From Amblyornis subalaris (Eukaryota; Chordata; Aves; Passeriformes; Ptilonorhynchidae), in contig JACAXG010000269.1 in the NCBI GenBank assembly GCA_018881555.1, positions 225,509 to 289,508 on the forward strand: a stretch of 64,000 bases of DNA. Direction: 5' to 3'. Shown piece by piece: positions 1 to 31,253 of this stretch (position 1 is its first letter; every line of letters starts with the position of its first letter). The notes beneath the pieces were generated by a model. The model had not been told where the DNA came from. It saw nothing but the letters and a program-made list of their open reading frames with translations, and did no database searches. Position numbers and translations under genes: made by a program.

Positions 1-5466
<5,466 letters not shown>

Positions 5467-12125: not shown

Positions 12126-12297
12126 CTTTGGCGAGGAAGGGGAGGGGAAGAACAGGAGGAGAAATGCATTAAATACTTGCTGCTAATTGAAATCAGAGGC
12201 TGCGAAGCCAGCAGCAGCTGCCGCGGAGAGAGCAGCGATACCCTCTGCCGGCAGGGAGACTCCTCCGGGAATGCCACACGCAGCCGGTCTTGTTTCG

Positions 12298-12842
12298 CAG
12301 AATCACAGAGTTGTTAGGGTTGGAAGGGACCTTTGGAAATCACCCAGTCCGACCCCCCTGCCAAGGCAGGGTCACCTGGACCAGGCGACACAGGAACGTG
12401 TTCGGGTGGCGTTTGAATGTCTCCAAAGGGGAAGACTCCACGCCCTCCTTGGGCAGCTGTTCCAGTGCTCTACCACTCTCCATGGAAAGATCTTCCTCGT
12501 GTTGAGGTGGAACTTCTTGTGTTTTCTTATGGCCATGGCTCCTCATCCTGTCACTGGGCATTACCGAAAAGGGTCTGGCGCCATCCTCTTGGCACTCACC
12601 TTGGAGTTGTGCGCGTTGGTGAGACCCCCCTCTCAGTCTCCTCTTCTCCAGACTCAACCGCCCCAGCTCCCACCTCTCCTCGTAAAAGAGAGATGCTCCA
12701 GACCCTCATCATCTCTGTGGCCTCTGCCGGACTCTCCTCAGTAGCTCCTTGCCTCTGTCCCGAGAAGCCCAGAGCTGGACACAGCACTCCAGCTGTGCCT
12801 CGCTAGGGCCGGGCAGATGGTCAGGATCCCCTCCTTCGACCT
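12298..12842 (-). mobile_element. CR1 LINE fragment abutting the DCP2 promoter (minus orientation)
   Basis: It starts with CAGAATCACAGAGTTGTTAG and GGTTGGAAGGGACC, the reverse complement of the CR1 3' end. It continues through GTTCCAGTGCTCTACCACTC, AGAGCTGGACACAGCACTCC and a GATCCCCTCCTTCGACC block, where it is 5'-truncated. The copy runs directly into the DCP2 CpG island and leaves only about 300 bp between the repeat and the DCP2 ATG. Confidence 0.88.
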
Positions 12843-12954: not shown

Positions 12955-13044
12955 ATTGGCCTCCCGCGATCACCTGAGCGCCCCGGTCCCGCCCGCGGCC
13001 CCGCCCCATTGGCCGCCGCGCCGCCGGCCGCGCGCGCCCATTGG
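12955..13044 (-). promoter_or_regulatory. DCP2: Three CCAAT (NF-Y) boxes in the DCP2 promoter
   Basis: ATTGG (CCAAT on the minus strand) occurs at 12955-12959, 13008-13012 and 13040-13044. Each sits in the same CCCATTGGCC context, the extended NF-Y consensus. Spacings are 53 and 32 bp; the second is about three helical turns, common for paired NF-Y sites. All lie 100-195 bp before the DCP2 ATG. Confidence 0.75.
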
Positions 13045-13146
13045 CCCCGGCAGCCGCCACTCCGCCGCCTCCCCGCAGCGCGGGCCCGCCTCCGCCGCTT
13101 CCCTGCGCCCCGGCCTCCGCCGCGTCGGGATGAGCCGCGCTTCCCC

Positions 13147-13199
13147 ATGGAGACCAAACGGGCCGAGATCCCCAGCAGCGTCCTGGACGACCTATGCAG
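13147..13199 (+). CDS. DCP2: DCP2 coding exon 1
   Basis: 53 nt coding for [17 protein letters not shown] plus two bases of a serine codon. It ends at a GTGCGG donor. The Kozak context is mixed: C at -3 and G at +4. Confidence 0.96.
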
Positions 13200-16100
13200 G
13201 TGCGGGCGTGGGGCGGGGGCGGCCCTGGCGCTGCGGTGCCGCTGCTGCCGGAGGGCGGGGAGGGTGCCTGCCCCCGCGCGGTCCCCCGGTGGGGCGCGGG
13301 GCCCGGGATGCTCGTGGACCCTGAGGGGGTGCGGGGTCACCCGGACTGAGAGGCGCCTTCGGCCGTCCCGCGACGGCCGGGAAGCGGAAGGAAGGGGCTC
13401 GCCCCGTTCCCCCTGTGCCCGAAGCTCCGCCCTCCCCGTGGAATCCGTCCTGGAAGGGCGGGAAGGCTGCCCGCGGCACTCTCTGGACCTGGTGAGGGGC
13501 TGCGCCGGCGGCAGGCCGGGAGCCGGGTGCGGGGGAAGTGGCAGAACGTTGTTTGTGAGGGTTTCTTGCGGGGTTTGGGCCGAAAAAGGTAAAAGTGCGT
13601 CGGCGGTGTTTGCGCAGGTGAAAGAAGAGCTGGGAGCGTGGGGCTGGCGTGACGCGGAGCCGAGCACTGGTGTGGGACCTGCTGCTCAGAGGTCTGGTTT
13701 CATTTGGAAGGGGTGGCAGGGAGTCCGCTCTGCTGATCTACCTCTGCTGGAAGGGAATGTGCCAGCGGACAGAAAGGGAAGAGCCATAGGGACACCCTTC
13801 GGTCAGAAGCTGCCCTCTCCCGCTTATCGGTTCTTTCAAAGTGAGATAGTTGGGTTTTCTCGTTCCAAGGGCTTTGCGTTTGAAGTTTCATAAATCATGG
13901 GTTCTGTTTTCTTGAAAATGGGGAAATTGCGTTTTCCCCTGATGGTTTCAACCTCTGATCATTTGTGGCGCAGCCTTTCAAAGTTTGTAATTTGTCTGTC
14001 ATCCTCAGAATGTGATGACACAAACTGCATGTGATATTCGGCATGAAATAATCCTTCTGTTTTACCACCTCCAAGGGACTCTTTATGAAGTATTTATGTA
14101 CAAGAGGGAAAGGTTACTAAAGACGAAGGATAGCCCACTTACTGTAATTACTATTTTCAAATGAGTGAAAATGTTTAGAAGTGAGAATACCACAGGAAGG
14201 TAGCTCTGCTCTCCCTGCTCAGTATAGTTTTGCACTTGTCTAATGCAAGACTCAGAGTCTGTGATATGCGTGTAAATTTTCGGTTCCCTAAATCTGACCT
14301 CTGAAACATGTTTGTGTTTCTGTTATTTCTTCTTTCTGCTCCCTGCAGAGAGAGGAACTTGCCTTTCAGATCCCTGCTCATATGTGAAGTAGGGTTTAAG
14401 ACTTTTTCGGAAAATCCAGAAGGGAATTGCAAGATTTACAGAACTGATACAGCCTGTTAGTGTCACTTCTGTAGGGTGACTGATAGGAGGGCACATGTGT
14501 ATTTGAACCTTATGTTGTAGTAGGGTCAGTCCCACTTCAGTACTGTCATCTTCTAGCTTTGAAATGATGTTTTGTATTACAACTCCATTAATGTTATAAA
14601 AATATCTGTCATTTCCCACAATTTTCATTCTATGTATAGTAGTGGGAGTTTTGATAGAAAGTACCGAGCAGTTTTTCCTACTCAGTTATTGGGTATTGTT
14701 AAATAAGAAGTCACAGGTATCCATGTAATTTTTTTGTCATGCTGTCTTGTGCTAGAGTTGTTATTTACAGAATAAAGAAGAGGAGGTGCAAAGATTTAAT
14801 GTAGGTTTTGCAGCTTCTTGATACTCCCTTTGTCTTATAAACAAATGCTGTTACCCTATCATTTGACTTCAGGACTGTGGTTGGTTCACCTTGCTGAGTA
14901 GCCAGATACTCACCCAGCCACTCACTGCCCCTCTTCAGAAAACATTTGAACGACTTCCTCTATGTCCCTGTTTTTCCCTGGGAAACTTCTTGTCAACTTC
15001 AGCCCTTCATTCTCTACTCCTCTACCTCCTCCCCCGTAAGCAGCTCAGGGGGATGAGGAATGGGGATTGTGATCAGTCCATAACACTCTCTCTCTGCTGC
15101 TCCTTCCTTCTTGTGCTTTGACCCTGCTCCACTGTGGGATCAGTCCCTTGGGCTGAAGCTCCTTCAGGAAATGTCCATCTGCTCCAGCACAGGACCCTCC
15201 AGAGGGTGTCAGGTGGACATCTCCTCTGCCTTCTTCTCTGACTTTGGTGTTTGCACTGCTGTTTCATGCTCTTTTTTTTCACTTGCTCTGCCTGGCTGGC
15301 ATTTTTGTTGTTTCTTAAATATGCTTCCCTAGAGGCACCACCGTCTCAGCTGTGCCCTGCAGTGTGTCCAGCTTTAGCCCCTCACTGCCAGCACCTGGGC
15401 ACCTGCACCTAGTACAGCCTAGAGATGCCTGTTGTTAGCGCTTTAGTCACTCCAGGTAACTTAGAAGTTAACTTTTTGTTTAATAAGTAGCACTCTAATT
15501 GGCTTTGCTCTTGTTCCTCTAAGCCTAATGTTTGGCATATTTTTATTTTTCTCTGATACTTCTACATATTGTGCTGGGGCAAGAAAATACCAGCTAGATA
15601 TAAAATGGACTTTTAAGGTTTTACCTTTTAGCTGCAGCAGCTTTGTCAATAATGGATCTTTTCGAAAGAAGTTGGGAGTGGTATTGCCAGTTGAAAATGG
15701 GAAGTGGGAAAATGCTGAAGTGAAGAAGATTATTTATGTAAGGGAGAATCACAGAGTCATAGAATGGTGTGGGTTGAAGGGACTGTAAAGATCATCTCAT
15801 CTCAAACCCACTGCCAGGGTTTGAGAGGAACCTTCTAGAGGGTTTGAGGAACCTTCTAGACCAGGTTCCTCAGAGCCCTCTCCAAGCTGGCCCTGACTAC
15901 TTCCAGGGATGGGGCATACCCAGCTTCTCTGGGCAATGTGTTCCAGTGCTTTACCACCGTCACAGCCAAGAATTTTTTCCTGGTATCTAAACCTGCCCTT
16001 TTTTGCTTTAAAAGCATTCCCCCTTGTCCTGTCACTACATGCCCTTGTAAAAAGCCCCTCTCCAGCTCTCTCTTAGCGCCCGTTTAGGTACCGGAAAGCC

Positions 16101-19100
16101 TCAGTGAGGACTTGCTTCAGCAGGTCACCATCCTTCTTATACTGGGAGTCCGATAGCTGGACACAGCACTCCGGGTGAGTTCTCACCAGAGCAGAATAGA
16201 GGGTGAGAATCACCTCCCTCAACCTGCTGCCCACACTGTGTTCCATCAAAAGAATGGGCTGGGAGCTCACAGTGCTGGCTCATGTCAAGATTCTCATCCG
16301 GCAACACCCCAACTCTTCCTCCCCAGAGCCGCTCTCCATCCATTTTCTGCCCAGCCGTTATGTTTATGTTGTGCTTGACCTTGCACTTAGCCTTGTTGAA
16401 ATTCACAAGGTTCGCACAGACCCCCTCTCAGGACTGCCAAGGTCTTTAAGGGTATCTGGTCAAGGACCTTTTTCAGTGTTAAAATTGGATAAGAAGATGT
16501 GAAGTCCATGAACAAAGCATACAAAGGCACAAACCCTACAGAGGAATGATAAGGAAGGCAGTGGTGAAAACCAAACCTGGCCTCTGACTGCTGAGGGCAT
16601 ATAGGAATATTCATTCCAGCAAGTTTATCTAAGTAGGGACCTGCTCCTGGGAAACAGGGAAAAAGTGGGGAAATGAAAAAAAAAAATATATAGACACAAA
16701 CCTAAGAAAACAGAAGTGGAGACAATGACAAGAAACAAACCTATTAATTGCACTAATTGACCAGCTGATAAGAAACCACAGGCATCACTCTCAGGAATAT
16801 CAGCCTGGCCTTTGCATCTCATAGGGCTATAAACCTGGAGGAATCCCATATACCTGGTTGGGAGGAGTGCTCCAGGGAAAGGGGAGCAGGGAGGGCCAAA
16901 GTGGGGGTACACAGAAAGGGGTATAAAAGGGTCAGGTTGTAAAACTGGGTGAGTTAATACACTTCTGTGGCTCAGCCTTCTGCCCGAATGTCACAGTCCA
17001 TCCTGTCTCTACATCTTCTTAGTAAATGTTTGTTTTCTGTCTACCTCCTGTACATGTGTGGTGCAAGAATGAAGTGCCAGCTACTGATGACAGCTGTGTG
17101 TGAGAGTGGGTGAGGTGTCAGCTACTGGAGTGAATGGGGATGTCTCAGTGCCAGCTGCTGATGAGGGTGGGGGTCTCAGCTTTTGGCGTCTGGGGTGGCA
17201 ATGAGGAGTGTCCTGGAAGCCAGCTTCTGTGGAGGAAATTGTGTGAGTGAAGGGAGTGAGGGGCAGAGCACTGGCAACTGCAGCAGGACTGTGGGTCACA
17301 GCCCATGTGCTGGGTTGGCGGAGGGACAAATGTCTTCTCTTCCCCAGACCTGCTGTGCTCACTAGCAGACTGCAGGCTGGACCATCTGGTGGGGCAGGGA
17401 CCTGTATGATGGGTGTGAGGGTCTGGGATCTGGGCAGGGGTATTGGGTGGAAAGAGAGACCTGTAGTGGTACCTGGGGAACCTGTGAATGTGCATGCACC
17501 TGTAAACTTGGAGAGTGTCAAGTGCATGCCTGCACAAGTGACCTTCTGCCTCTGTCCTTGGCCAGAGTGCCTCAGAGAGGCAACCAATTCTGACATCCTG
17601 CAACAATTCATACTTTTCAGATTTTAAGTAAAGATGTGACATTTCTGGTTTGAGCAATGATATTATGTGCTTTTGGAATTTAGCTGGTGGCACTCAGGAG
17701 TTGAATCTTTGTCAGTGGGGTGTATGACCTTAGATTTCTAAGAAGAAAGTTCTGCTTTTGATAGAAATAAATAAATAAATAAAGCTGCTTCTGCTTAAGT
17801 AAAATAAGATATCACACAGTGGTCCTTAATTATGTGTCTGTGACTCTATGTTTGTGTGGCAGTATCTGGGCTAAAGCATAAAGTAGACTTGAAAAATAAC
17901 CCAATTGTCCATATTCTGTTTCAGACTGAGAAAATTAGTAGTATCATATTGAATTTTAAAATCTACATAAATTATTATTTTATTGTGGTTTTAAGTGCAA
18001 ATATGTAACCATGTTTAACTTGTGTCCTGAAAAAAAAATGCACTGAAACCTCTTATCAGGGTTTGCAGATGTTCTTTACTGGACCTGTAAAAATGCTTTC
18101 ATTTTTGTAATACAGCCACTTATGTAGGTTGTCCTCACCCTCCCTGTTTTCACAACAGTTAATTTACTTAGTATATTTTAGTTGAAGTTTCTGAAATAAT
18201 ATCATGATCCATTTTCGTTCTTGACTTTAAAACCTGTATTTTACTTTGTGAAAACCTCTTACTGTCACTGCAGAACATGAGGAGGATCTGATGGTCTGTT
18301 GGTATGTGCTAATGGATCAAGAATTGCACTGTTGCAATGTTTTTATTGTTAGCTTTATTTAAATCAATAGATTTGGCTAATCTTACTCTTGTTCTTTCCT
18401 GGCAGCCGATTTATTTTGCACATTCCAAGTGAAGAGAGAGACAATGCAATCAGAGTGTGTTTTCAGATTGAACTTGCCCATTGGTTTTATTTGGATTTCT
18501 ACATGCAAAACTCACCAGGATTACCTCAGTGTGGGATAAGAGACTTTGCTAAAGCTGATATCCTTTTTATTGCTGTGATTGTTTTCTGTCTCAGTGGTAA
18601 AGTGCAAACTGACTATTGTTAACAATATTTCATAATCTGATAATGTCAGTTCATGTGTTAATGATTAAAAGTTAGTATTGCTAGGATTGTGATTTTACTT
18701 AGTTCACTGCTTCGATAATTTTGTGGCACCCACAAAAGAGATGCTTCTCGACTGCTAAAGAGCTATGGAAAACTGTCACTTTCTGATCTTTGAGGATTTT
18801 TCTTCATGGTTGTACTTCGCATACTAGATAGGTTTCAAGGATGAGCTGTTGGAGCTCTTCGAACTGCACTACACAGTTTAATTAATTTTCAAGTAAATAG
18901 TGACATAAATGTTAAAGTATTTGAGGGTGATATATGTTCCCCCATGGGCAGCAGTGTGTATTTGTTGGAAGTGTCTGTTTATAGGAGAGAGGATGCATTT
19001 TTACTGAATTCATATGGTTGGCTCCTGCTTTTTTCGTTGCATGCAAAGGCTGCTGGAATGTATACTATCTAATCCTTGCAATGTGTACTATCTAGTCCTT

Positions 19101-22100
19101 GCTGTAGAAAAGCTTGTGGCTTTCATCCAGCAAGTGTTTTAGTTTTAACCTTTTTCCATAGGTTCTTGATGTGAGATTGAAATTTTGCTTCTAACTTTGA
19201 GGATAATATTATCTATGGTTTTGCTACCCAAAATACTTACCTGTTAGTTTGATAATATAGATTTACTTCGATACACTACAGCTTTTATTCTAACAGTAAA
19301 CTGTAAAAATATGGTTGATATTATGCTGTTATTTTTTATTTATTTTATGTATGATTTTAATTATAAATGTATTTTCAGACCAACAAAATTCTGCTAGTAA
19401 TTGTAGGCAGTGCAGAAAAAACACAGTGTAATAGATGTTTTATGTTCATTACATCTGTACCTCTCTAGTTCATATTTGCCAGAAATACTAGTTCTGCTGC
19501 AGTGTCATATTTTTAAATGCTCTGCTATGAAGTATTTTTTATTGGTGGAATAATATGTATAATATATAGTATTTAATACTTTTATTAAGGACTTGCAGAT
19601 TTTCTCTCATAATTTTAGAGTTACAGAGGTTGTTTATGTTTTCTCTGCATGGTGAGTTTTGGTAAAGTGTATTAGAATTTAGATTTCTGTAACTTTATGC
19701 CATTAAAGAATTTTTTTTGCATAGTAAATATTGAAGATAGTGTTCTGTGCCATAATCTTAACAAATGTTTGTGGGAAAAATTTATCTCCACTTATTTCGA
19801 GCACAAGGAACTGAGGTTTTGTCTGTCTTACTCACTTCAAAGAAAATGTGTTTATGAATAATACATATTCAAAATAACCTTTATGTGGATAACAGTTTTT
19901 TTCCAGAATTAGGGAGGACTTTCCTTCAAACAAGCAGCCTTGTGTCATCTTTTTTCTTGTCTTTTTTTTTTTTTTTCCATTTATTTAAGTTGGCTTGTAG
20001 TGGAATTGCCAAATTGCTCGGATGTGCTCTGACCTTTAGTGTTTGATAGTGGATTATTAATAATATTTTTTTGCTTCCAAGAGAATATGTCTTGAAAGCA
20101 CTTAGGGGAGGGAGTATGCTTAGTCTAAATGTTGAGTGGTTATCTTTTGTATTCTGTATGTCATTTGGAGCTGGTTGCTTAAGTTTATCTTCCTTAACAT
20201 GCTGCTGTACTCTTCAATCACTGCCCTTTTTTACTGCCTCAAGGTGAAGATGTACAAAAGGTTTTAGATGAGTGGAAAGAATACAAAATGGGAGTGCCGA
20301 CCTATGGTGCAATTATTCTTGATGAGACACTTGAAAATGTAAGTATAGAAATAGCTGTGAAGGACTGGCTAGAGGGAAGGGTGGCAGAAGTAATTCTTTG
20401 TTGTTTACATTTTTCTTCTGGAGAAATTTACATTCACTGTCAGCTTCACAGGGATCTTGCAGTTACTCGATATTGTTGACTGTGTACAGAAGTATGTGAG
20501 ACAGTAAACACACTCCTGCTTGGTTGCCTTGTCAGTTTCCTTCTCAGGGTTTTTTTTTATTCTGAGTTACACAATTCCATAAGCAATTTTGCAGTTCTTG
20601 CTAGAACTCAGCAAAGCTAATGGGTTCCTTCCTTCAGGCTAAAGTATCCTTTTGGAGAACGAGGGGGTGGTGGAGGGAAGACATTTAATAAAATTGGTTG
20701 GAACCACCTGTGTGTTTGACAGTTACATTTCCTTGTATTTTGTAGGTTCTTTTGGTTCAGGGCTATTTAGCAAAGTCTGGCTGGGGATTTCCAAAAGGGA
20801 AAGTAAATAAAGAAGAGGCACCTCATGACTGTGCTGCTAGAGAGGTAAGTTATATCTAATTCCTTTAAATTTAAGCTAAAGAAGTGAAGTATTGCTGAGA
20901 TCAGCACATATGTGTTAGATGAAAAGGCATTTTACTTAAGTATCTATTTTTTGAAATCAGGTGGATAAATAGTCTGTTCTTGCAGTCATCTTCTGCTGTT
21001 GCTTCTGGTGCCTTTCTGAGTTCCAGAATAGTAACCAAGGTTGAGGTTTCGATCAAAAAAAAATTCAGTGGTTTATATTTCAAGTTGTTTTGCACTAATG
21101 TGCTTAAATGAAGTGAGTACTATTCTAAGATTCTCTGCCAAACTGTGAATTTACTTTTAATTATTATTTGTGGTCCTTGGAAAATATTATGTACTTATTT
21201 TGTACATGTATTATGTATTATGCATTGTATTATGGCTTTTGGCATATTAATTTCAAGGGTCACCGTAACTGTAAAAAGGTGGAAGAATGGGAATTCAGCC
21301 TGTGTACACTGGTCTGTGTAGAGAGGCTAAGGAGCTGAGCTGGAGGTTGTAGAATTTTATGTAAAAATTGTGAAGAACTTTACTTTTCTATTTTTCAGTT
21401 ATGCAGGAACAAGAATCAATGTATGTGGCAAGTAAAATGTGAAAAATAAAATAATCTGTGGTATTTATTGCTCCTGGAGACCTAGATATGTAGTGAAGCT
21501 GCATATTAAAAATGGCCTGTAAAAGAATATTACTGGTACAAACTCAGTGTTCATTCTACATAATACATCCAGAGTTTTTGAGAGAGAAAATTAAGGTGAG
21601 GGAAAGTAGTATAACGCATTTAGTTTTTTTCAGTTGGACTGAATCAGTATATAAGAAATCATGGGGGTTTTTTGTTTTTATTTTAAATATACCTGTCGAA
21701 GACTAGACATAACTGCTTCAGGAAGGAATGACAGAAAGTATCTCTTCCTCATCAGGTTATGCTGGCAAAAGCATTAAAGTGGGCACAGTTATACTGGGGA
21801 AAAAAATCTTTTGATGGTGTTCTTAATTTGAAGAATTGATTTATTTCATGAGTGAATGGCACTGTTGCTATGATCTTTTTCCCGTCAAGTTTGATTGTCA
21901 TTGTGGATAGACTGACAAATTCCTGAGGGCTTACATGTGGCCAGGAATTGGGATGTCTGTAATATCTGAAATAAATCTCTTAACTGCTCTCACTGGAGTC
22001 AGCACAGATCTGGAACCATAAGCTGCATCTTTGTCAAATCTAAGTGAAGAGGTCTTCACTTGGCAGTGCCTACACAGTTCAGTAGTATTCCAGAAGTTGA

Positions 22101-25100
22101 TGAGGACTAATCCCATCCATATTAGCAAATTGCTACATGAAGGTGTAAGAGAGTTGTTTCAACTTGCATTACAGGTCTGCTGTCTCAGAGAAATATAAAG
22201 CACCTAGGTACTTTTTCTATTATTGAGCACATATTTATGTGTAAAGGCTTGTTTTTCCCAGCAGCTTTCATGGATATATCTGTAAAATAGTCATTCCTTT
22301 GCTTCTGATAATAAGCTGTGAAAGGATAGCTCTGAATACACAGACACTAATTTAATCTATATACTTCTCAGGTGTTTGAAGAAACTGGGTTTGACATAAA
22401 AGATTATATCTGCAAAGAGGACTACATTGAGCTGCGAATTAATGATCAATTAGCACGGCTGTACATCATTCCAGGAGTTCCCAAGAACACAAAATTCAAC
22501 CCCAAAACTAGAAGGGAAATTCGGGTATGTGTTACCTTGTTTGAATCTATAGGAACCTTGTGGAGCTTGATTTTTAAAGCCAAAAGTATGTAAATTAATT
22601 AATTAAACCACTAAGCTCAATGAATACCTCAAATACTAGGTATCGGTGGTGTCTCTGCACTGTAGGGTTTTGTGTCAGCTTCTTGCAGCTCACTGCAAGT
22701 CTGATATTTGACCACGTGTCTGACATCTCCATTGATCACAAATACACATTAGAGCAGGCTGCCAAAATATAATTCTCCCCTTCTTTTTTCGTAGCTGGTG
22801 TATGTGTTAATAATTTCATGTTAATTTTAGTTACAGATGCATATATAACTATGTATTCTCAAATTGTAATTATTAGTTGGGGATATGCAAAAGCCTACAT
22901 ACCAGAAGGAGAAACTAAGGATTGTTTTCTCTTTCATGGCTAATACCATCCAGATTTAAAGAACAGTGTATTTTAAGGAGAAGGTTGGGAAGGGGACAGA
23001 AAATGGGAACTATTTTAGGTGTATTGTGTACCATTAGACTTTTCAAAGGTGTTGTGAAAGGGAAAGTCAGAGGCTCAGGCAGCAACTTGTTGGAAACTTT
23101 GTTCCTGATATCTATAAACTCTGAAGTTTTGATATGTTTTCTCGTGTGGCAATTCAGTTTAAAACAGCTCTATATTTCCATGCAGATGGTGTCACTGAAC
23201 AGGGCATCTGGCTTTCTGAATAGGGAAAGGTACTTGTAGTTGACTGGGCAGGACTCAATTTCTTGCAGTAAGAGACCTGTTTTTCAAAATATAGATAAAA
23301 TTTGAGGGTTTTTTTTAATGTACAGTAAATATATCCCTTTGTAGAACAGTGACCATATGCATGGAAATGTTGAAGAGTTCTTGCCATGACAGAGTTTTCA
23401 AGCATTGCCTTCATCTGATCTAATACAACCAGGCATGCCGGTTTTGTATTCCCTGTAGAACTATATTGAAAACTGTTCCATTTGTAACTTATTTTCATAA
23501 TTTGCATATTTTCTGGACCTGGGGCTTTTGGAGTAGATTCTGTGATAGAAAATCTCGTGGATTCTTCTACAGCATCAGTAGTCAGAATTCCTGACTTTGT
23601 TCCCCATTCTTCAGAGTATACAGTTTTGAGTTAAAACTATAAACTGTAACACAAATCCTATCCTTTACACGTTTTTTTTTCTTTTATAAAAAAACCTGAA
23701 ACTTACTCTCAAACTAAATACCCTTCCTTCCTGATAATTTTTGAACGAGTATTGGTGGTCCAGTATTGATGGCATTTTAAGTAAAAAGTTATTGAGAGTT
23801 GTTTAAAGCCTCTACATTTATGTATGGCATTCTGTGTGCAGTGGTTTGGTTGGTTTGTTTATGGAAGTCTTATTCAGAATTTAGTTGCTGATTAATACCT
23901 TTCATATTTTAGGTGCGATATCATGCAATGAGTATGTGCTGTACCATCTGCTACTGTAGTGGCAGTCAGAAGAATGACCCCATTGTTAATTAACCTTTTG
24001 TGAAAAACGCTGTTGTGGCCCGTTAATTTAAGTCTACCATGGTAATTTTTTATTAAGGAAAATAATTGTGGCTGATACACATTTGTAACATTCTGCTAAA
24101 GCTACAATACTTTGATTTTATTTCTTGTTTTTCTAGAATATTGAGTGGTTTTCCATCGACAAATTACCATGCCACAGAAATGACATGACCCCAAAATCCA
24201 AGCTGGGTTTGGCTCCTAACAAATTTTTTATGGCAATTCCCTTCATCAGGTATGTTTGAGATGAGGTAAATGCTAGGCCATGGTCTTTCAGACAACTTTA
24301 AATTCTTTAGATTTGTTTTAGTAAGTAGATCTTGTTGTACTTGCTCACAGGCCATTGAGGGAATGGATTTCCCGAAGGAATGGTGATTCCTCAGATAGTG
24401 AGAATGGTTTTTCATCTGCAGGGAGCACACCCTCTAAACCCAACCTGGAAAAAGCTAGGTAAGAACCAGGTCAGTTTAACACCTCTATATTCTTTCTTAT
24501 AAAACATTGGTCAAAGCTGCTTGTCCTTTCTCTTTTTCCAAGTATTTGTGTTCCAGTAATAGAGTGGGTTAATGAGAAAAATAAAAGCCTAATCTCATAG
24601 GATTGTAAATAGAATAAGAACTTAATTAATGTCATGATACACAGGTGTCAGAACTGAGATAATTTCTTGAGTCTTGTTTATGGGAATCAAAAAAACTAGA
24701 AGGTAAAACAAGTAGATAACTTTGAGTGCTTCAAGGTCACTGCTGTTGGCACTCCTGCAGAGGAAAAGCAGGACTGTAAAGTACTCTCAGAAGTAGCCAG
24801 CCAGATAAAACCTGTGGGGATCAGGGGTAGGTTGTAGGGGAACAAGTAGGGGAACAAGTGCTGCTGGCTTTAGATTCAGCTGAGTGAAAAGTGGTAGAGC
24901 AAGCTTTAAAACCTGTAGTCCCTATGAGAGGACTCCAGTAATTTGAGTCAGGGCAACACTGAGAACAACAGGACAAATGCTAATGAGTGGGCCTGGCCTT
25001 TTGTCTATGGAGAACACAAATGGCAGTGAGCATTATTAGCGTTTCCATGCTAGGTTACTTAACTCTGTCATCCAGATTGTTCTCAAAAAGCAGAAAATAC

Positions 25101-28100
25101 TTTCGTATTTGTCTTCTGCTGTCAGTAGACTTGAAGTTGTGTTGTAAACTGTCTTTGTTTTCCTGTACTAGATCCAAACTTCGCTGTAGTCAACAGGTGT
25201 TTACAGATGGCTTTTCAGGAGAGCAGAATGCGAAGCCAAAACAGCCACAGAAGCCATATAATCATCCTGAGGTGTCTGAAGTTTTGAAAGTAAAGGTAGG
25301 TTGTTTCTTAGGCAAACATATGCATCTGGACTATTTAAAAGAGGTGTCTTTGTTCATAAGGGTTTCCTCTCTAGGACAAAAACAGTGAATTTCATCACCA
25401 TATAATGCAAAAATAAAAACATGGAGTGGGGAAGTACTCTTGGGAATCCTCTGATTTATCTTACACCAGAGGTGGTGGTATCAGGTAGTAATTAGGTTGT
25501 TTCATGTATAGATAGTAATTAGTACTTGCCATTTTGGTGTTATCTCTAATATATATGCATCAATGCATGGGAACTCACTGAACACAATTTACTGTGTAAT
25601 AATTCTGTAATAGTGCAAGAGAGATTGAGTAACAGCTGATGACCCTGTAACTTGAGTGTATGTTGAGTTAATTTCAGTGTGCTTCAGTTTGTCTACAAAA
25701 GAAACTGTTTACATGTTTTGAAGTTACTTGGAGGGAAGTTTTAGCTAGGAAGTAGGAAGTGTCAATGCAGTGATGTTCAATTCTGCCATTTAAACTCTTC
25801 CATCTACTTATTTTGGACTTAATAGCAAAGTCAGAGCCTGAAGAACAATGGCAGAAAGCAAAATCAAGATACTTCCAGCCAAAAGAAGCGAACAAATGGA
25901 GTGCACAGTCAACCAGTTAAGCAAAACCATACCTTGGTAAGAAACATGCAGTGGTTGTGTTATTAATAGGTTCCAGTAATGCTTAACAAATGTCCAGGCC
26001 AATGTCCTGCTGAAGGAAAGTAGAGTGCGTATCTGTCAAAAGTATATTTGATCAGGGTATTTGATAGGTATTTGTAGATATGTTATTTCTTACGTTGTAT
26101 GCATATACATCTGTAGACAAGCATACTAAATTTCAAGGTTTGCATTGTAGAAGTAAATAATTTTAGCTGTTGAAAATTTGTCAGTTGTTTCAGTACACAA
26201 TCCTGCAGTTTTTCAGGCTCCCGTCATGTAAAACCCTCCTGTAGTGTGTAATAACTCAGTGTAGTACAGGTCATTTATTCATGTATGATGTCTTCCTGTA
26301 AGCATGGGATTTTGCTAGGCAACACCTAGAAAGTGGTAATGCAAATGTATATTATTTCCCTTCTCTCCAATAAAAATGTTGAGACACAGACATGGCTTGG
26401 TTGTCGGAATCTCTCATAATTTTTTAATCACACAGTAGAGCTGTATACAGCAGTTTGTAAATTCCAGTATCATACTCTTTGCTTGTTACTTTCCCTTTCA
26501 GTAACTAGTTGTATTTGTCAAGTTCTTCTGGATGGGAGGAGACTCACTGAGCTGTACTCCCTTTAATTAGAATGTGCTTTTGATTCCCTGTTTTTTATGG
26601 CTCTTCAGTATACTTTGTTGGCTCTTGTGCAACAGCAAGCACCCAGTTCTCTGTACAGCTCAGCTGGCTTGTCCAGGCTTTAGTTGTTCTTGTTTACAGG
26701 TTGTAAACGACATTCTTCCCATTCTGGCTTGTGGTTATTGGCTTCTTTCTGTTATTCATATAAACAAACAGAAACCGTAAACTCTTGTCCTGCAAAATCC
26801 TCACTGTAGCAAGAAATTATTAGTTATGTTTGAGTCTGAGCGTAGAAGAATGAAAAGTCAAGGAATTGACTACCCAGAAATTTGAATGGGTAGAAAAAGA
26901 CTGTAATGGTAATCTGTAGGATCTTCATGGAAACAAGTGGAACTGTTAATACTCCACAGTTACTTTGCAGGCTCTTCATAGACTTTTCTAAATATTTCTC
27001 TATTTCTGTTTCACTTGTGTTTTCATGATTGTCAGTCTTTTGAAGTTTAAATATTTTGTGTCCCAGTGATAATTTTCTGATACAGTTTGAAGGACAGAAA
27101 ACTCTTAATTTCCAGAGAGTCCAAAGGGTCATATTTTTTTTTGTATTGATTTACTTAGAGCAGCACACCTGGGGCTAAAACATCTCTTTCCTGGAGAGTT
27201 CTAAGTTTGTGTCTCTAAAGCGTGTTAATGTAATTGGCAGTAGCAGCATGTTTGCAAATACATTCCCCTTGCTTTTTTTTGGGACAAGCTGATTGAAGAG
27301 TGGGCTTATGCATGCACAACTTTGACTCCACACCATCGTATGCAAGAGCCATCTATCTTAAAACAGTTAGAAAGTACTCAAATTTTTCCCTTAAAAGCCT
27401 GCATTTTAAAAACATTTTGTTGATTCTTAAAATGTTGCATGCTTCTGAAAGACTTGTGGATTTGAAGCATGCTTGCTAGATGAAGTAACATGACAGAATT
27501 AATGCTGAGTTACAAGTAAAATAATTCACACATGAGGAGGTGTGTCAAAGCAAATATAACCAGTATGCCTTTTAGATTATGCTTAAACTATACTGCTGAA
27601 AAATAGAATGCCATTTCTTTATCATAAAATGTGTAATTTATGGTCATTCTGTTCACCAGAAATGTGAAAAAAAGCTTAATCCAAGAAGACTTCAAGATAA
27701 CTTTGAAACAGGCAAGTGCAGTCAGAATTTTCATCCACTGTCCTGTGTTACAGGCTGAAGGCACCTGAATAATGATGGTTGAGGGCTTTTCCTTGTATGC
27801 CAACCTGCCAATGTTATAAAGCCATGTTTTTCTAAGGTAGTCTGAGGTTTTGTTTGTTTTTTTAATGAAAAATATACTGTTTCATGTTGATTTTGCAATT
27901 CTTCTCCTTAATTATAAAGACTGTCTGATGTACCAGGTGGCTGAGTAAAAATTAGTTAAAGGCTGATTTAGGAAAGTAGTATCTGAGTCAACACTGGGTG
28001 CTGGTAATTGAGTGTTGATTCAAGGCTTTCTGCCCTCCTAGTATAAGCTGCACATGGTTCTTTACTTATTGCTCAGAAAATAGTGCCATATTTTTTTTCC

Positions 28101-28543
28101 TTATTAAGAAATGGCTTGTGAAGCAGTATTAATGTGGCTAAAACTGGCTATTGAAAGTGTTTCCAGATTACAGTGACTCTTTAAGATTTATTCTGTGCTC
28201 TAGATGACTTGTAAATATGGCTGTTTGAGTTACCTTCTTCTGTTTATGACCAAACACGCAGGTTTTGTTATAAGTATTAATTGAATGTACATTTGAGGTA
28301 TGGCTTTGTGTTGTTATTGATACTTTAGTTGGGAACTGTCCATTTAAAATTTGTTTCATGCTTTTTTCTCTTTAAGCAGAAGCAGCATATGAGATGTGTT
28401 GCTCCAGTGAAGACCCACTGCCAGAACATGTAGAGGGACATTCTATGGCATGCAATGGCCATTACAAATTTGCATTTTCATCAAGAGCTTTCTTGAGTTT
28501 CAAGTTTGACCATGATGCCATAATGAAAAGTTTTGACCTCTGA
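13147..28543 (+). CDS. DCP2: DCP2, mRNA-decapping enzyme 2 (complete, 11 coding exons)
   Basis: DCP2 is the Nudix hydrolase that cleaves the 5' cap of mRNA to release m7GDP, with DCP1 and EDC factors in P-bodies and cytoplasm. Coding exons: 13147-13199, 18406-18557, 20211-20338, 20746-20844, 22372-22524, 24137-24249, 24351-24458, 25172-25295, 25826-25936, 27660-27711, 28380-28543. They join in frame to 418 residues plus stop (human has 420). Residues 1 to about 94 form the helical DCP1-binding domain and about 95-245 the Nudix domain. The Nudix box is intact at G129, E135, R143, E144, E147, E148 and G150; E147 and E148 are the known metal-binding catalytic pair. The tail after about 250 is polar and variable, and ends in a conserved block ([17 protein letters not shown]). 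The ATG at 13147 gives METKRAEIP, the family N-terminus. Intron 2 is AT-AC (U12 type) and intron 10 is GC-AG. Confidence 0.97.
15747..16465 (-). mobile_element. CR1 LINE fragment in DCP2 intron 1 (minus orientation)
   Basis: It begins with AGAATCACAGAGTCATAGAA, the reverse complement of the CR1 tail. It continues through ACTTCCAGGGATGGGGCA, CCCCCTTGTCCTGTCACTAC, GGCTCATGTCAAGATTCTCA and ACCTTGCACTTAGCCTTG into CR1 open-reading-frame sequence. It is the longest CR1 copy in the window. A local 23/21-bp tandem duplication (15818-15861) lies inside it. Confidence 0.88.
15818..15861. repeat. Tandem duplication inside a CR1 copy
   Basis: GGTTTGAGAGGAACC plus TTCTAGAG is followed at once by GGTTTGAGGAACC plus TTCTAGAC. 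Two adjacent near-identical units of 23 and 21 bp. The CR1 family normally has one such block, so this is a local duplication after insertion. Confidence 0.8.
16490..17065 (+). mobile_element. LTR-like element in DCP2 intron 1
   Basis: The segment has the layout of a retroviral LTR: a purine-rich left part, a TATA box (GGTATAAAAGG at about 16920), then a C/T-rich stretch, and a TAGTAAATG block followed by TGT-rich sequence (17020-17060). I do not recognise the family, no coding internal region follows, and both edges are approximate. It could instead be unique sequence with a chance TATA motif. Confidence 0.4.
17074..17200 (+). repeat. Degenerate short tandem repeat
   Basis: The motif GTGCCAGCTACTGATGA recurs with changes at 17074, 17115 and 17148, and faintly near 17174 and 17216. 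Spacing is 41 then 33 bp, with G-rich filler. It directly follows the LTR-like element and may be the start of its internal region or a decayed minisatellite. Confidence 0.5.
17765..17783. repeat. AAAT microsatellite
   Basis: Nearly five perfect copies of a 4-bp AAAT unit in DCP2 intron 1. Confidence 0.9.
18406..18557 (+). CDS. DCP2: DCP2 coding exon 2
   Basis: 152 nt after a CTGGCAG acceptor, coding residues 18-68 plus one base (from [14 protein letters not shown] to GIRDFAKA). It ends in GCT G, followed directly by ATATCCTTTTT, a U12-type donor, not by GT. It covers most of the regulatory domain that binds DCP1. Confidence 0.96.
18558..20210 (+). other. DCP2: DCP2 intron 2: U12-type AT-AC intron
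   Basis: The 5' end reads ATATCCTTTTT, an exact match to the AT-AC minor-spliceosome donor. Near the 3' end TTCCTTAAC (20190-20198) matches the U12 branch site, and the intron ends in GTAC at 20207-20210, with the branch A about 13 nt before the acceptor. Only this splice gives [15 protein letters not shown], agreeing with the DCP2 family. Length 1653 bp. Removing it needs U11/U12 and U4atac/U6atac snRNPs. Confidence 0.95.
19057..19102. repeat. Tandem duplication of a 23-bp unit
   Basis: AATGTATACTATCTAATCC plus TTGC is followed directly by AATGTGTACTATCTAGTCC plus TTGC: two adjacent 23-bp units with two mismatches, inside the U12-type intron. Confidence 0.85.
20211..20338 (+). CDS. DCP2: DCP2 coding exon 3
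   Basis: 128 nt coding residues 69-111, from [11 protein letters not shown] through [16 protein letters not shown]. It starts after a U12-type AC acceptor and ends at GTAAGT. It holds the hinge between the regulatory and Nudix domains and the first strand of the Nudix fold. Its first 33 nt (CACTGCCCTTTTTTACTG then CCTCAAG) also resemble an ordinary 3' splice site. Confidence 0.95.
20746..20844 (+). CDS. DCP2: DCP2 coding exon 4 (Nudix box, first part)
   Basis: 99 nt after TTTTGTAG, ending at GTAAGT; residues 112-144. It includes [18 protein letters not shown] and AARE, so it supplies G129, E135, R143 and E144 of the Nudix signature. Confidence 0.97.
20845..22371 (+). other. DCP2: DCP2 intron 4 (1.5 kb)
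   Basis: GTAAGT to TTCTCAG. AT-rich; I see no repeat family or gene in it. Intron 3 (20339-20745) is 407 bp, GTAAGT to TTGTAG, and is likewise empty. Confidence 0.9.
22372..22524 (+). CDS. DCP2: DCP2 coding exon 5 (Nudix box, second part)
   Basis: 153 nt, residues 145-195, after CTTCTCAG and before GTATGT. It begins [12 protein letters not shown], giving catalytic E147 and E148 and G150 of the Nudix motif. It continues with [18 protein letters not shown] and [10 protein letters not shown] of the Nudix fold. Confidence 0.97.
22525..24136 (+). other. DCP2: DCP2 intron 5 (1.6 kb)
   Basis: GTATGT to TTTTCTAG. I recognise no repeat or gene in it. Confidence 0.9.
24137..24249 (+). CDS. DCP2: DCP2 coding exon 6 (Box B region)
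   Basis: 113 nt, residues 196-232, between TTTCTAG and GTATGT. It encodes [16 protein letters not shown] and [15 protein letters not shown], the C-terminal strands of the Nudix domain and the start of the Box B helix, which binds RNA. It is followed by a very short 101-bp intron (24250-24350). Confidence 0.96.
24351..24458 (+). CDS. DCP2: DCP2 coding exon 7
   Basis: 108 nt, residues 233-268, CTCACAG to GTAAGA. It encodes [20 protein letters not shown], the end of Box B and an acidic serine-rich linker into the disordered tail. Confidence 0.95.
24459..25171 (+). other. DCP2: DCP2 intron 7 (0.7 kb)
   Basis: GTAAGA to TGTACTAG. No repeat or gene recognised. Confidence 0.88.
25172..25295 (+). 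CDS. DCP2: DCP2 coding exon 8
   Basis: 124 nt, residues 269-310, from TGTACTAG to GTAGGT. It encodes a lysine/glutamine/proline-rich part of the tail ([20 protein letters not shown]). It is clearly more diverged from mammals than the Nudix exons, as expected for the disordered region. Confidence 0.92.
25296..25825 (+). other. DCP2: DCP2 intron 8 (0.5 kb)
   Basis: GTAGGT to TTAATAG. No repeat or gene recognised. Confidence 0.88.
25826..25936 (+). CDS. DCP2: DCP2 coding exon 9
   Basis: 111 nt, residues 311-347, from TTAATAG to GTAAGA. It encodes [20 protein letters not shown] and [14 protein letters not shown], a basic, polar tail segment that aligns with the KRTNG block of mammalian DCP2. 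Confidence 0.93.
25937..27659 (+). other. DCP2: DCP2 intron 9 (1.7 kb)
   Basis: GTAAGA to TTCACCAG. AT-rich; nothing recognisable in it. Confidence 0.9.
27660..27711 (+). CDS. DCP2: DCP2 coding exon 10
   Basis: 52 nt, residues 348-364 plus one base: [17 protein letters not shown]. It is followed by GCAAGT, so the donor is GC and not GT; the exon end CAG matches the strong consensus that usually accompanies GC donors. Confidence 0.93.
27712..28379 (+). other. DCP2: DCP2 intron 10: GC-AG intron
   Basis: Exon ...ACAG, then GCAAGT at the 5' end and TTTAAGCAG at the 3' end, 668 bp. The nearest GT (GTGCAG, 4 nt downstream) would shift the frame and hit a stop within a few codons of exon 11. The GC donor restores the conserved frame [15 protein letters not shown]. 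Retained, the intron adds 15 codons and then TGA at 27756-27758. Confidence 0.9.
28380..28543 (+). CDS. DCP2: DCP2 coding exon 11 (C-terminus)
   Basis: 164 nt, ending in TGA at 28541-28543. It encodes a short acidic segment, then a conserved block ([20 protein letters not shown]) that closes the protein. In animals the C-terminal region of DCP2 is reported to contact the scaffold EDC4; I infer the same role here. Confidence 0.95.
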
Positions 28544-29395
28544 CAGCAAACTTACTGGGAATAAGAATCAGACTTGCCTGTTGCAATTGAGGGGGTTTAT
28601 TATCCAGCCTTACTCTTTCTCAGGAGTTTTTTATTTTGTTTTGTTTGTTTGTTTTTAAATGCAATGCAGGGACTGACTGCTGGTTTGGAAGGGTTTGTTC
28701 TCTTTGCAGTATGGGAGTGGCATAGTCAAGTGTTGCACTTTAAATGCAGTATAGCCTTTGTCCACAAAAGTACCTTTCCAATGTTCAGTTCACTTGTTCC
28801 TAGCTGTGCGTTAGAGGGCATTCTTTTTACTTGTGTTTTATTTTTTGTGGTTTCTAAATTTTTTTTTATTTTGACTTGCTGTGTGTTTTGTAGAGTGTCA
28901 TTGATTTTTTTTTTTAACTGTTGGAGTATACCAGCTTGCTAATCTTTTAACTGTTCTGATGTAAATTATTGGACTTGTTAGTCATTATTTTGTAGTACAT
29001 TGCAATATTATGCAGTGGCAATGAAACTAATTCTCAGAGGACACCTCTGTCCTAGTGATTTTGAAACCAAGTTGCACATTTCAAACCTAGCCTCAGCCTT
29101 TCTCTGTACTGATTGTTTGCCCCTAATACCTTCCCTCCTTCACACTGATAGTTTTTGTTGGCTGGCAATCACTAGTACTTGACTCAAATCTATAGCATGT
29201 TGACTTTTTGTACCTATTCTTCCTTGGTCTTCGATAATGACACTCAAACTGGGTAGAACTCAGCCCTTCCAAGTGTCTAACTTAACTCTTGTGCACTGCC
29301 CCCAACTGCATAAGAAGTTACAAAGCAGCTGCTTTTGGAAAAAGAAAAGCTTAAACTTGTCTGTGAGAGGTTGCTTGTGTAGAATTTATACTGAA

Positions 29396-29403
29396 TGTAA
29401 ATA
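29396..29403 (+). promoter_or_regulatory. Pumilio-response-like element, copy 1
   Basis: TGTAAATA, an exact match to the PUM consensus UGUANAUA, in the DCP2 3' UTR on the sense strand. Confidence 0.4.
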
Positions 29404-31253
29404 AGCCTCTGTAGATCTCGCTGAGGAGGAAGGCAGGTGCATGGATAATAGAGGCATTGTGTGACACTGAACAGCTTAATCAGGCTTCCAGTAACTATTC
29501 CAAGGGTGTTCAGTATTGTATTCTGTGCTGTTGTCCTCAGATCTCTTGTGTAGTGTATCTGCTCTGTATATATCCAGTAGTATTGAATTGCACTTGCGGT
29601 TAGCATTTAAATGATCTAGCCTCAGTCATTTTCAGCTACAGTGCTTTCTTAGGAAAAACATGGAAGATGGGATGGAGTTGGAGGGGAGGAACAAAAAAAC
29701 AGTAAGAGTGGAGGTGATGAACTTGTTACATCATCTTCAAAGTAGTGGGTTTTGAGCACGCGCTTTGCAGTGGAAAGAAATGCACTGAAATAATTTGTCA
29801 CAGCAGCTTGTGATAGCAAGCATGTCCCAGATTTAAAAATGGACTTTTCTCTAGAATAGAGGTAATTGATAACTTCATAGGTCGAATGAACTACACCCTT
29901 GTAGTGTATGTACATGCACTGAGTTTTTATGCAACTCATACGTCATCCAAAACCAAAATCCTGGTCTTCCTTCAACCACCCTACTTCATCTACCCTACCT
30001 GATCTGTTACCTAGTCTTTTCCTCAGAAATAGCTTTAGAACTTTCTCCTGGTTTATTCACCTGCCTGGCACCAGGTGATTTGGAACGCTAATGCTGTAAT
30101 AATTTTGGCCATGAGAGTGCTCAACTTCTGTATCAGTCAACAGGAGAAACAGATTACAGCATTTCCTCCTTCTGGAGGAGAGGGGTTCTGAGGGCCTTGT
30201 TTTTCAAGACCAAATTGTGAAATAGCTCAATCTAGCTTTGACTCATTTTTGTTTGGTTTTTTTTTTCCTTAAACGTATCCAAAGGCCATACAATGACAAA
30301 GAAGAGTAATTGAGAAGGTAGGATAATGCTGGAGGAGGTTACATTATTCAGCTTCAGGTGAAAAATAATCTTTAGTTACTTCTTTAGTGCTTTTTTAGTT
30401 GATTTCCCAGCAAAAGTGCCTTTACTCATGGTGAGGCAGAAGTTTGTATCATATCCTGAGGCTGCTACTGCCTGTGGAGTTAACAGGACTCTCCTAAGGC
30501 ATAATTAAATAACAGGCTGTGGAAATCTTTTTATAAATAAGTTGACTTTTCAGATAAATTAGTTATAGATCATTTAGTGCTCTGTGAAATAATGGGGATG
30601 TTGATGAAACAGTGAACTTGGAGCATCTGTCATCTGTTTGGGAAGTCCTGTCCCAGGCAAGAGGAAGTCTTTAGAATAATGGAAGCATGTCCCATGAATG
30701 GGAGATGCTGGCTGCCCTCTGTTTACTGTGTCATTTTTTTCTTCTTAGTGAAAGGTTGGTTCAGTATAAGAGACATTGGTTGCTTCATTAAGCAACCCAA
30801 AGTGGAGCTTATACATGTCATGATTTTAGTAAACCTAGCCTTAATGTGAGTTGCAAATAAATGTGATAAATATGCAATAACTTACTTCTTTGTATAAGGG
30901 TACCGTTTCTTATAGTAGCATTGCTTCCTGCTTTCTTAGTAAGGTTTCTAAAACTATGTAGGTGTGCTGGCATGTGATCCACTTCTTGGGTTCCATCATG
31001 CCCTGCACGGTGAACATTTTGTTTACTATTGCTTATGTTCTTATTTCACCATCCTTTTGTAATTATATTTCTAAGTTCAGAAGTACTGTTTACATTATCT
31101 TCCATGAAACAGTGAAGAAATAGTGAGATACAGACTTCAGTTCTGTGAGTTTTTAGTTTATGGAGCTAGACACAGAGAAACAAGAACTGTTTGCATGTCA
31201 GACTCGATAGCTGGTGTCAAGATACTTGAAAAATAAACACTGTCAATGTGAGA

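What the first reader, a model, noticed from the sequence alone, without database searches (positions are those of the whole stretch)
18558..20210. DCP2 intron 2 is a U12-type AT-AC intron
Seen: donor ATATCCTTTTT directly after codon phase 1, branch site TTCCTTAAC at 20190-20198, terminal AC at 20209-20210 with branch-to-acceptor distance of about 13 nt. This is a near-perfect minor-spliceosome intron, and only this splice yields the conserved [15 protein letters not shown]. Known: AT-AC U12 introns are rare in vertebrate genomes. Inferred: output of the main decapping enzyme depends on the minor spliceosome, linking U11/U12 activity to mRNA decay. I cannot say whether this intron is already listed in U12 intron catalogues.
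Basis: partly seen in the sequence, partly recalled or inferred. Interest (0 to 1): 0.8.

Follow-up and report, generated by a model that had tools for sequence, protein, structure and literature searches.

The report
U12-type AT-AC intron in DCP2
The gene for the main mRNA-decapping enzyme of this bird contains one of the rare introns removed by the minor spliceosome; it seems shared with mammals and fish, and it seems to have misled automatic gene-finders into writing wrong decapping-enzyme sequences in public databases.

Summary
Confirmed. Window 18558-20210 is intron 2 of an avian DCP2 gene. It starts ATATCCTTTTT, ends TTCCTTAAC-ATGCTGCTGTAC, and splits codon 69 after its first base. Donor and branch site match the U12 consensus without mismatch; the other nine DCP2 introns mapped do not. 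Of 104,400 donor/acceptor pairs tried, only this one restores the conserved peptide. No RNA was available. Protein databases give an indirect test: of 81 records that run past the exact end of exon 2 without the normal junction, 80 continue D-I (79 D-I-L), as G|ATATCCT reads. They include 12 of 13 such named fish records, 8 mammals, a turtle and many birds. Five records also read through the branch site. The intron is therefore probably at least as old as bony vertebrates. Exon 3 also holds a strong in-frame GT-AG-type acceptor 33 nt inside; 11 of 236 records fit its use. The intron is a further member of a known class, very likely catalogued already. The five papers found that name DCP2 beside a minor-intron term do not link them. 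Control of mRNA decay through U11/U12 remains untested.

The parts
18406..18557 (+). DCP2 exon 2 (codes for most of the box A regulatory domain; ends after base 1 of codon 69)
   Evidence: Pfam DCP2 box A PF05026 residues 12-93 of the model
18558..20210 (+). DCP2 intron 2, U12-type, AT-AC subtype, 1653 nt, phase 1
18558..18568 (+). U12-type 5' splice site ATATCCTTTTT (0 of 9 mismatches to RTATCCTTT; C at +5, not the G of U2-type AT-AC introns of sodium channel genes)
   Evidence: +5G rule from passages of PMC2831892
20190..20198 (+). U12-type branch site TTCCTTAAC (0 of 9 mismatches to TTCCTTRAY), second A 13 nt from the intron end
20209..20210 (+). 3' splice site AC
20211..20338 (+). DCP2 exon 3 ([14 protein letters not shown]...)
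18620..18622 (+). first in-frame stop if intron 2 is retained: an 89-residue product without the Nudix domain
20242..20243 (+). AG of a strong U2-type (GT-AG type) alternative acceptor inside exon 3, 33 nt downstream and in frame; rank 23 of 1166 AGs in 13000-30000 by a simple score with recalled frequencies
   Evidence: 11 of 236 fetched protein records have a junction peptide that fits it
18597..18602 (+). GT donor (GTG|GTAAAG) 39 nt past exon 2, in frame; scores below all nine other DCP2 donors (4.6 against 6.0 to 11.6); with acceptor 20244 gives an open frame ([20 protein letters not shown])
   Evidence: the same junction peptide is in the model of Calyptomena viridis, P0037
19379..19427 (+). 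possible 49-nt cassette exon inside intron 2, open in frame when joined to 20244 ([22 protein letters not shown]); counterpart in Manacus candei isoform X4 (P0110), tblastn E 8e-6. Its splice sites are poor here (acceptor 3.2, rank 250 of 1166; donor 0.9)

Best explanation
18558-20210 is a genuine minor-spliceosome intron (U12-type, AT-AC subtype) of DCP2. U11 would pair with the donor and U12 with TTCCTTAAC, leaving a branch-site A bulged; excision then joins codon 69 (G|TC, Val) inside the box A regulatory domain. If excision fails, the message either hits a stop after 21 further codons (89-residue product, no Nudix domain) or is rescued by GT-AG cryptic sites. The intron was probably present in the common ancestor of ray-finned fish and tetrapods. 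Shown here: the splice signals, their conservation pattern (indirectly, through translated gene models), the unique protein-restoring junction, the retention stop. Inferred: actual splicing by the minor spliceosome, the snRNA pairing, and any effect on DCP2 level.
For: Perfect donor and branch site at the right spacing, with AC end; joint chance about 1e-8. None of the other 9 mapped DCP2 introns resembles it: donor mismatches 3-7 of 9, best branch-site mismatches 2-3 of 9. The joined protein is DCP2: best database hit 95% identical over 100%, PF05026 and PF00293, solved DCP2/NUDT20 and SPAC19A8.12 chains. 107 of the 236 proteins fetched have the same junction peptide. Of 81 records with the exact end CGIRDFAKA and no normal junction, 80 continue D-I and 79 of those D-I-L. 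That is what G|AT ATC CTT reads. Of 13 such records with a fish name, 12 continue D-I (11 D-I-L, Caranx D-I-F; the exception is Mola mola); in these 12 residue 4 onward is mixed, so likeness stops where the U12 donor ends. Five records (kagu, fruit bat, two deer, a characin fish) read SLTxxxLF.HCP, which fits TCC TTA ACN nine bases before the CTC at the acceptor: the branch site, at one spacing.
Against: No transcript was examined. Conservation is read from translated gene models and peptides are degenerate, so DIL is compatible with but does not prove ATATCCT. Records are not independent species: 4 of the 12 fish are Oryzias, and some are unnamed. The queries themselves contained DILF, which favours such records. 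Mola mola (P0128) continues CLMH instead, and two Nothoprocta records (P0075, P0107) jump from FAK to VLDEW.
Confidence: 0.97

Rival explanations
1. The intron is AT-AC but spliced by the major (U2) spliceosome, like the AT-AC introns of sodium channel genes.
For: U2-type AT-AC introns exist (passages of PMC2831892; 85 major AT-AC or related introns mentioned in PMC8280824).
Against: Those of the sodium channel genes have G at +5; here +5 is C and the donor is ATATCC, with a perfect U12 branch site. It scores -7.7 as a U2 donor against +6.0 to +11.6 for the other nine DCP2 donors (frequencies recalled).
Confidence: 0.01
2. The real intron is the GT-AG alternative 18597-20243 and the AT-AC reading is a coincidence.
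For: It is in frame and open, its acceptor ranks 23 of 1166 AGs, its donor 85 of 1161 GTs, and the Calyptomena viridis model P0037 has this junction peptide.
Against: It replaces the conserved [11 protein letters not shown] by [13 protein letters not shown] and lowers the box A score from 108.4 to 87.2 bits, though the domain is still recognised. The donor scores below all nine other DCP2 donors. 80 of the 120 proteins listed have the normal junction.
Confidence: 0.01
3. AT-AC and GT-AG routes are both used: the minor spliceosome makes the normal enzyme, and the exon-3 acceptor serves isoforms that bypass exon 2 or arise when minor splicing fails.
For: 11 of 236 records fit acceptor 20244; two named isoforms, Alca torda 2-T2 (P0101) and Manacus candei X4 (P0110), reach it from something other than exon 2. 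The Manacus segment matches the inside of intron 2 (19370-19429, E 8e-6); the Alca segment may too (18751-18774, 6 of 8, E 1.0, weak). In human cells CENATAC loss raises retention or cryptic major splice sites for AT-type minor introns (passage of PMC8280824), and loss of minor snRNAs causes exon skipping (passage of PMC8034651).
Against: Most of the 11 look like automatic models that may have been forced to GT-AG. The join 13199/20244 that skips exon 2 soon stops. In 6 of 9 fish records that show the stretch, the residue before Gly is H or N, not Q, so the AG would not form.
Confidence: 0.3

Closest known systems
U12-type AT-AC introns (as catalogued in U12DB, IAOD and MIDB; P120 is the usual test case)
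   Same: ATATCCTT donor, TTCCTTAAC branch site 13 nt from AC, phase other than 0, RNA-metabolism gene, probable deep conservation
   Different: Nothing structural; only the host gene. The five papers that hold DCP2 together with a minor-intron term were checked by passages and do not link the two. The catalogues themselves could not be opened.
A-type minor introns that need CENATAC (PMC8280824, passages read)
   Same: AT-AC termini, so predicted to belong: 92% of such introns responded to CENATAC depletion
U2-type AT-AC introns (sodium channel type)
   Same: AT-AC termini
   Different: +5 C instead of G, U12 branch site present
Minor-intron genes with cryptic major splice sites nearby (PMC8034651, PMC8280824, passages read)
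   Same: A GT-AG type acceptor lies 33 nt into the next exon
   Different: Here the alternative acceptor keeps the reading frame and is encoded by the CPFLLPQG stretch (Q in 135 of 147 records that show it)

Membership tests
U12-type intron | 5' splice site RTATCCTTT (consensus recalled) | tested here: met
   0 of 9 mismatches
U12-type intron | branch site TTCCTTRAY close to the 3' end (consensus recalled) | tested here: met
   0 of 9 mismatches, A 13 nt from the end
U12-type intron | not recognisable as a U2-type intron | tested here: met
   U2 donor score -7.7; 3' end TCCTTAACATGCTGCTGTAC has no AG
U12-type intron, AT-AC subtype | AT...AC termini at the exact exon borders | tested here: met
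   only 1 of 104,400 splice pairs restores the conserved peptide
[quoted passage not shown]
   phase 1; bias described in PMC7367187 (passages)
U12-type intron | evolutionary conservation of the class at the same position | tested here: inconclusive
   strong but indirect: 80 of 81 read-through records start D-I; branch site read through in 5 records; no orthologous DNA could be fetched
U12-type intron | splicing depends on U11, U12, U4atac, U6atac | not testable with these tools
   needs RNA from minor-spliceosome-deficient cells
U2-type AT-AC intron | G at +5 | tested here: not met
   +5 is C (rule)
DCP2 (host gene) | box A plus Nudix domain, collinear with known DCP2 | tested here: met

The most novel reading that the evidence does not exclude
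DCP2 carries a spliceosome switch at its box A/Nudix border. The AT-AC intron makes the normal enzyme through the minor spliceosome, while a GT-AG acceptor 33 nt into exon 3, encoded by the CPFLLPQG stretch of birds and mammals, lets the major spliceosome make in-frame or box-A-less DCP2, in some cases from cassette exons inside the intron, when minor splicing is slow. Retained intron 2 gives a stop after 89 codons. Minor-spliceosome activity would thus set decapping capacity, and because decapping serves nonsense-mediated decay, DCP2 would help clear its own and other retained-intron messages.
Probability: 0.12. Interest if true: 0.65.

Novelty: new member of a known kind. Interest (0 to 1): 0.36.

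Why it matters
DCP2 is the main mRNA-decapping enzyme (general knowledge). If it depends on an AT-AC minor intron, defects of the minor spliceosome (disorders of RNU4ATAC, RNU12, ZRSR2 or CENATAC, partly recalled) could slow mRNA decay generally as well as change individual transcripts, and this can be tested in existing RNA-seq data. In practice, 36 of the 120 best DCP2 proteins listed contain residues translated from this intron. Alignments, structure predictions and evolutionary-rate studies that use those records are corrupted at the regulatory-domain border.

Tried and rejected
U2-type AT-AC intron: rejected, +5 is C and a perfect U12 branch site is present. GT-AG intron 18597-20243 as the real one: rejected as the main form because it destroys a peptide shared by 80 of the 120 DCP2 proteins listed. 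A second U12 intron in the window: a perfect donor GTATCCTTTTG at 20644 lies inside intron 3, but the only perfect branch motif on the + strand is the one at 20190; rejected. Rfam over the window at gathering thresholds: 0 hits. A search of viral contigs for the exon 2-5 peptide, in the hope of stray animal DNA, found no relative. Locating the extra segments of P0101 and P0110 by tblastn: the listing was cut and gave no answer; repeated it placed P0110 at 19370-19429 and gave only a weak place (E 1.0) for P0101.

Literature: seven searches pairing DCP2 or decapping with minor-intron terms. The five papers that hold DCP2 with such a term were checked by passages (PMC11765398, PMC6401655, PMC8421315, PMC3038855, PMC4926174); in none are the two linked. 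For PMC6401655 the passages searched were U12, minor spliceosome and 'DCP2 gene' only. The papers were otherwise seen only as listings. Also seen as passages: PMC7367187, PMC10639083, PMC8280824, PMC3584512, PMC9501576, PMC8034651, PMC2831892. U12DB, IAOD and MIDB tables and supplements could not be read.

Rows and counts: the pattern missed two normal junctions (P0058, P0118); the recount gives 80 normal, 36 intron-reading and 4 other of 120. One search sorted 236 proteins into 107 normal, 80 reading D-I, 3 other, and 46 without the vertebrate exon-2 end. Of those 46, 44 are short divergent sequences and two are P0101 and P0110. The fish and mammal groups were picked by hand from the D-I records, so their D and I counts are set by that choice; the honest figures are 12 of 13 fish and 8 of 8 mammals among named records that run past the exact exon-2 end.
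Full report
What is there. The window holds a DCP2 gene on the + strand. Eleven exons were placed: exon 1 13147-13199, exon 2 18406-18557, exon 3 20211-20338, exons 4 to 9 up to 25936, exon 10 27660-27711, and exon 11 from about 28380 (acceptor ambiguous among AAGCAG repeats) to a stop at 28541-28543. The joined 418-residue product matches avian DCP2 at 95% identity over its whole length. It carries the box A domain (residues 12-93) and the Nudix domain (98-210), and aligns with solved chains named DCP2 (NUDT20) and SPAC19A8.12.

Intron 2. It runs 18558-20210, 1653 nt, and splits codon 69 after its first base. It begins ATATCCTTTTT and ends TTCCTTAACATGCTGCTGTAC. Donor and branch site each show no mismatch over nine positions to the U12 consensus (consensus recalled; class features described in PMC3584512, passages). 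The other nine introns of the gene show 3 to 7 donor mismatches and 2 to 3 branch-site mismatches, and all nine end in AG. The chance of both signals at these borders is about 1e-8 under a first-order model of the intron. Of 104,400 donor/acceptor pairs, one restores [18 protein letters not shown]. U2-type AT-AC introns of sodium channel genes have G at +5 (passage of PMC2831892); here it is C.

A test in other species without their DNA. No vertebrate genome could be searched. But many public DCP2 proteins are gene models that run past exon 2. Three protein searches gave 236 proteins in all: 120 of 1352 hits listed, all 73 hits, 120 of 409 hits listed, with overlaps. 107 have the normal junction. 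Of 81 with the exact end CGIRDFAKA and no normal junction, 80 continue with D-I, 79 of them D-I-L. G|ATATCCT reads Asp-Ile-Leu. The named species include Acipenser, Arapaima, Ameiurus, Astyanax, Oryzias and Periophthalmus among fish, dingo, ground squirrel, fruit bat, goat and deer among mammals, the turtle Caretta, and tinamou, megapode, turkey and many other birds (names). Of 13 such records with fish names, 12 continue D-I; in these 12 the third residue is L 11 times and F once, while position 4 is L 4, T 4 and S, K, R, H once each. Likeness thus ends where a U12 donor ends. In mammals and birds it runs on (DILFIT), as expected for closer relatives.

Branch site and acceptor. Five records (kagu P0051, fruit bat P0079, two deer P0194 and P0195, cavefish P0198) read through the 3' end of the intron as SLTxxxLF.HCP. 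SLT fits TCC TTA ACN, the branch site, with 11 nt between AAC and the exon, against 12 in this window. 22 records have Leu just before F.HCP, as expected for C|TC at a C end. In 20 of these the residue before can have a codon ending in A, as an AC end needs; in two (P0020, P0021) it is Phe, which cannot, and these probably come from very short invented introns.

Limits of that test. Peptides are degenerate and records are not independent species. The queries contained DILF and so favoured read-through records, although one search listed every hit down to E 1e-3. Mola mola P0128 (CLMH) and two Nothoprocta records do not fit. Taken together I judge conservation to the base of bony vertebrates likely, not proved. 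Two short proteins of unnamed origin, P0177 (FAIQ-DIL) and P0178 (FMEI-SIL, which would fit A|GT ATC CTT), hint at the same intron, perhaps with GT ends, outside vertebrates. This is a lead only.

Database damage. In one search, whose query was the normal protein, 36 of 120 listed sequences carry intron-derived residues at this junction, 80 are normal and 4 are other. By my reading of the names, 27 of the 36 are titled DCP2 hydrolase, partial.

A second acceptor. Exon 3 contains CCCTTTTTTACTGCCTCAAG|GTGA at 20243/20244, which ranks 23 of 1166 AGs in 13000-30000 by a simple score with recalled frequencies. It lies 33 nt inside exon 3, in frame. 11 of 236 records have a junction peptide that fits it. 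The model of Calyptomena viridis has exactly the peptide that this window would give with donor 18597. Manacus candei isoform X4 and Alca torda isoform 2-T2 reach it from elsewhere. The Manacus segment matches 19370-19429 of this window (tblastn E 8e-6, 15 of 20 identical), inside intron 2; the Alca segment has only a weak place at 18751-18774 (E 1.0). The glutamine that forms the AG is present in 135 of 147 records that show the stretch, and in 3 of 9 fish. Whether any of this occurs in RNA is unknown.

Mechanism and consequence. Inferred from established minor-spliceosome biology: U11 and U12 recognise donor and branch site and the intron is removed slowly; AT-type introns also need CENATAC, with 92% of them affected on its depletion (passage of PMC8280824). 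Retention here gives a stop at 18620-18622 after 89 residues, without the Nudix domain. Nonsense-mediated decay of such messages is plausible, but aberrant minor-intron messages were reported to escape it and bind polysomes (abstract passage of PMC8034651).

Known or new. About 700 human introns are minor, 24% of them AT-AC, and 94% of human minor introns are stated to be kept in chicken (passage of PMC10639083). Whole-genome catalogues therefore very probably list this intron already; they could not be opened. Five papers hold DCP2 with a minor-intron term; their passages do not link the two. The library lacks most subscription journals. Verdict: a real, textbook-grade member of a known class, in an interesting gene, with a useful warning about DCP2 records.

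Noticed in passing
27712-28379: DCP2 intron 10 appears to be GC-AG (CAG|GCAAGT) with a tandem AAGCAGAAGCAG acceptor, so this one gene would use AT-AC, GC-AG and GT-AG introns.
   Followed up: partly
P0177 and P0178 (proteins, origin unnamed): Dcp2-like fragments that run from the end of the box A exon into FAIQ-DIL and FMEI-SIL, compatible with ATATCCT and GTATCCT donors at the same codon position, perhaps outside vertebrates.
   Followed up: no
public DCP2 records P0005, P0010, P0011, P0014-P0017, P0020-P0023 and others: Many bird DCP2 gene models contain peptides translated from intron 2 or from what look like very short invented introns; these records should be corrected.
   Followed up: partly
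5035-5328, strand -: Open stretch with MTAAMRQRFDRFLHEKNCMTAVLERIESKTGVSRTYIAT looks like the first exon of REEP5 (recalled likeness). REEP5 stands next to DCP2 in a human 5q gene list in PMC3038855 (passage).
   Followed up: no
20644-20654: A perfect GT-form U12 donor word (GTATCCTTTTG) inside DCP2 intron 3 with no perfect branch motif downstream on the + strand of the window.
   Followed up: partly
12280-12800 and 15740-16480: Stretches that look like avian CR1 repeats (recalled likeness: GGTTGGAAGGGACC, TTCCAGTGCT), in line with a bird genome.
   Followed up: no
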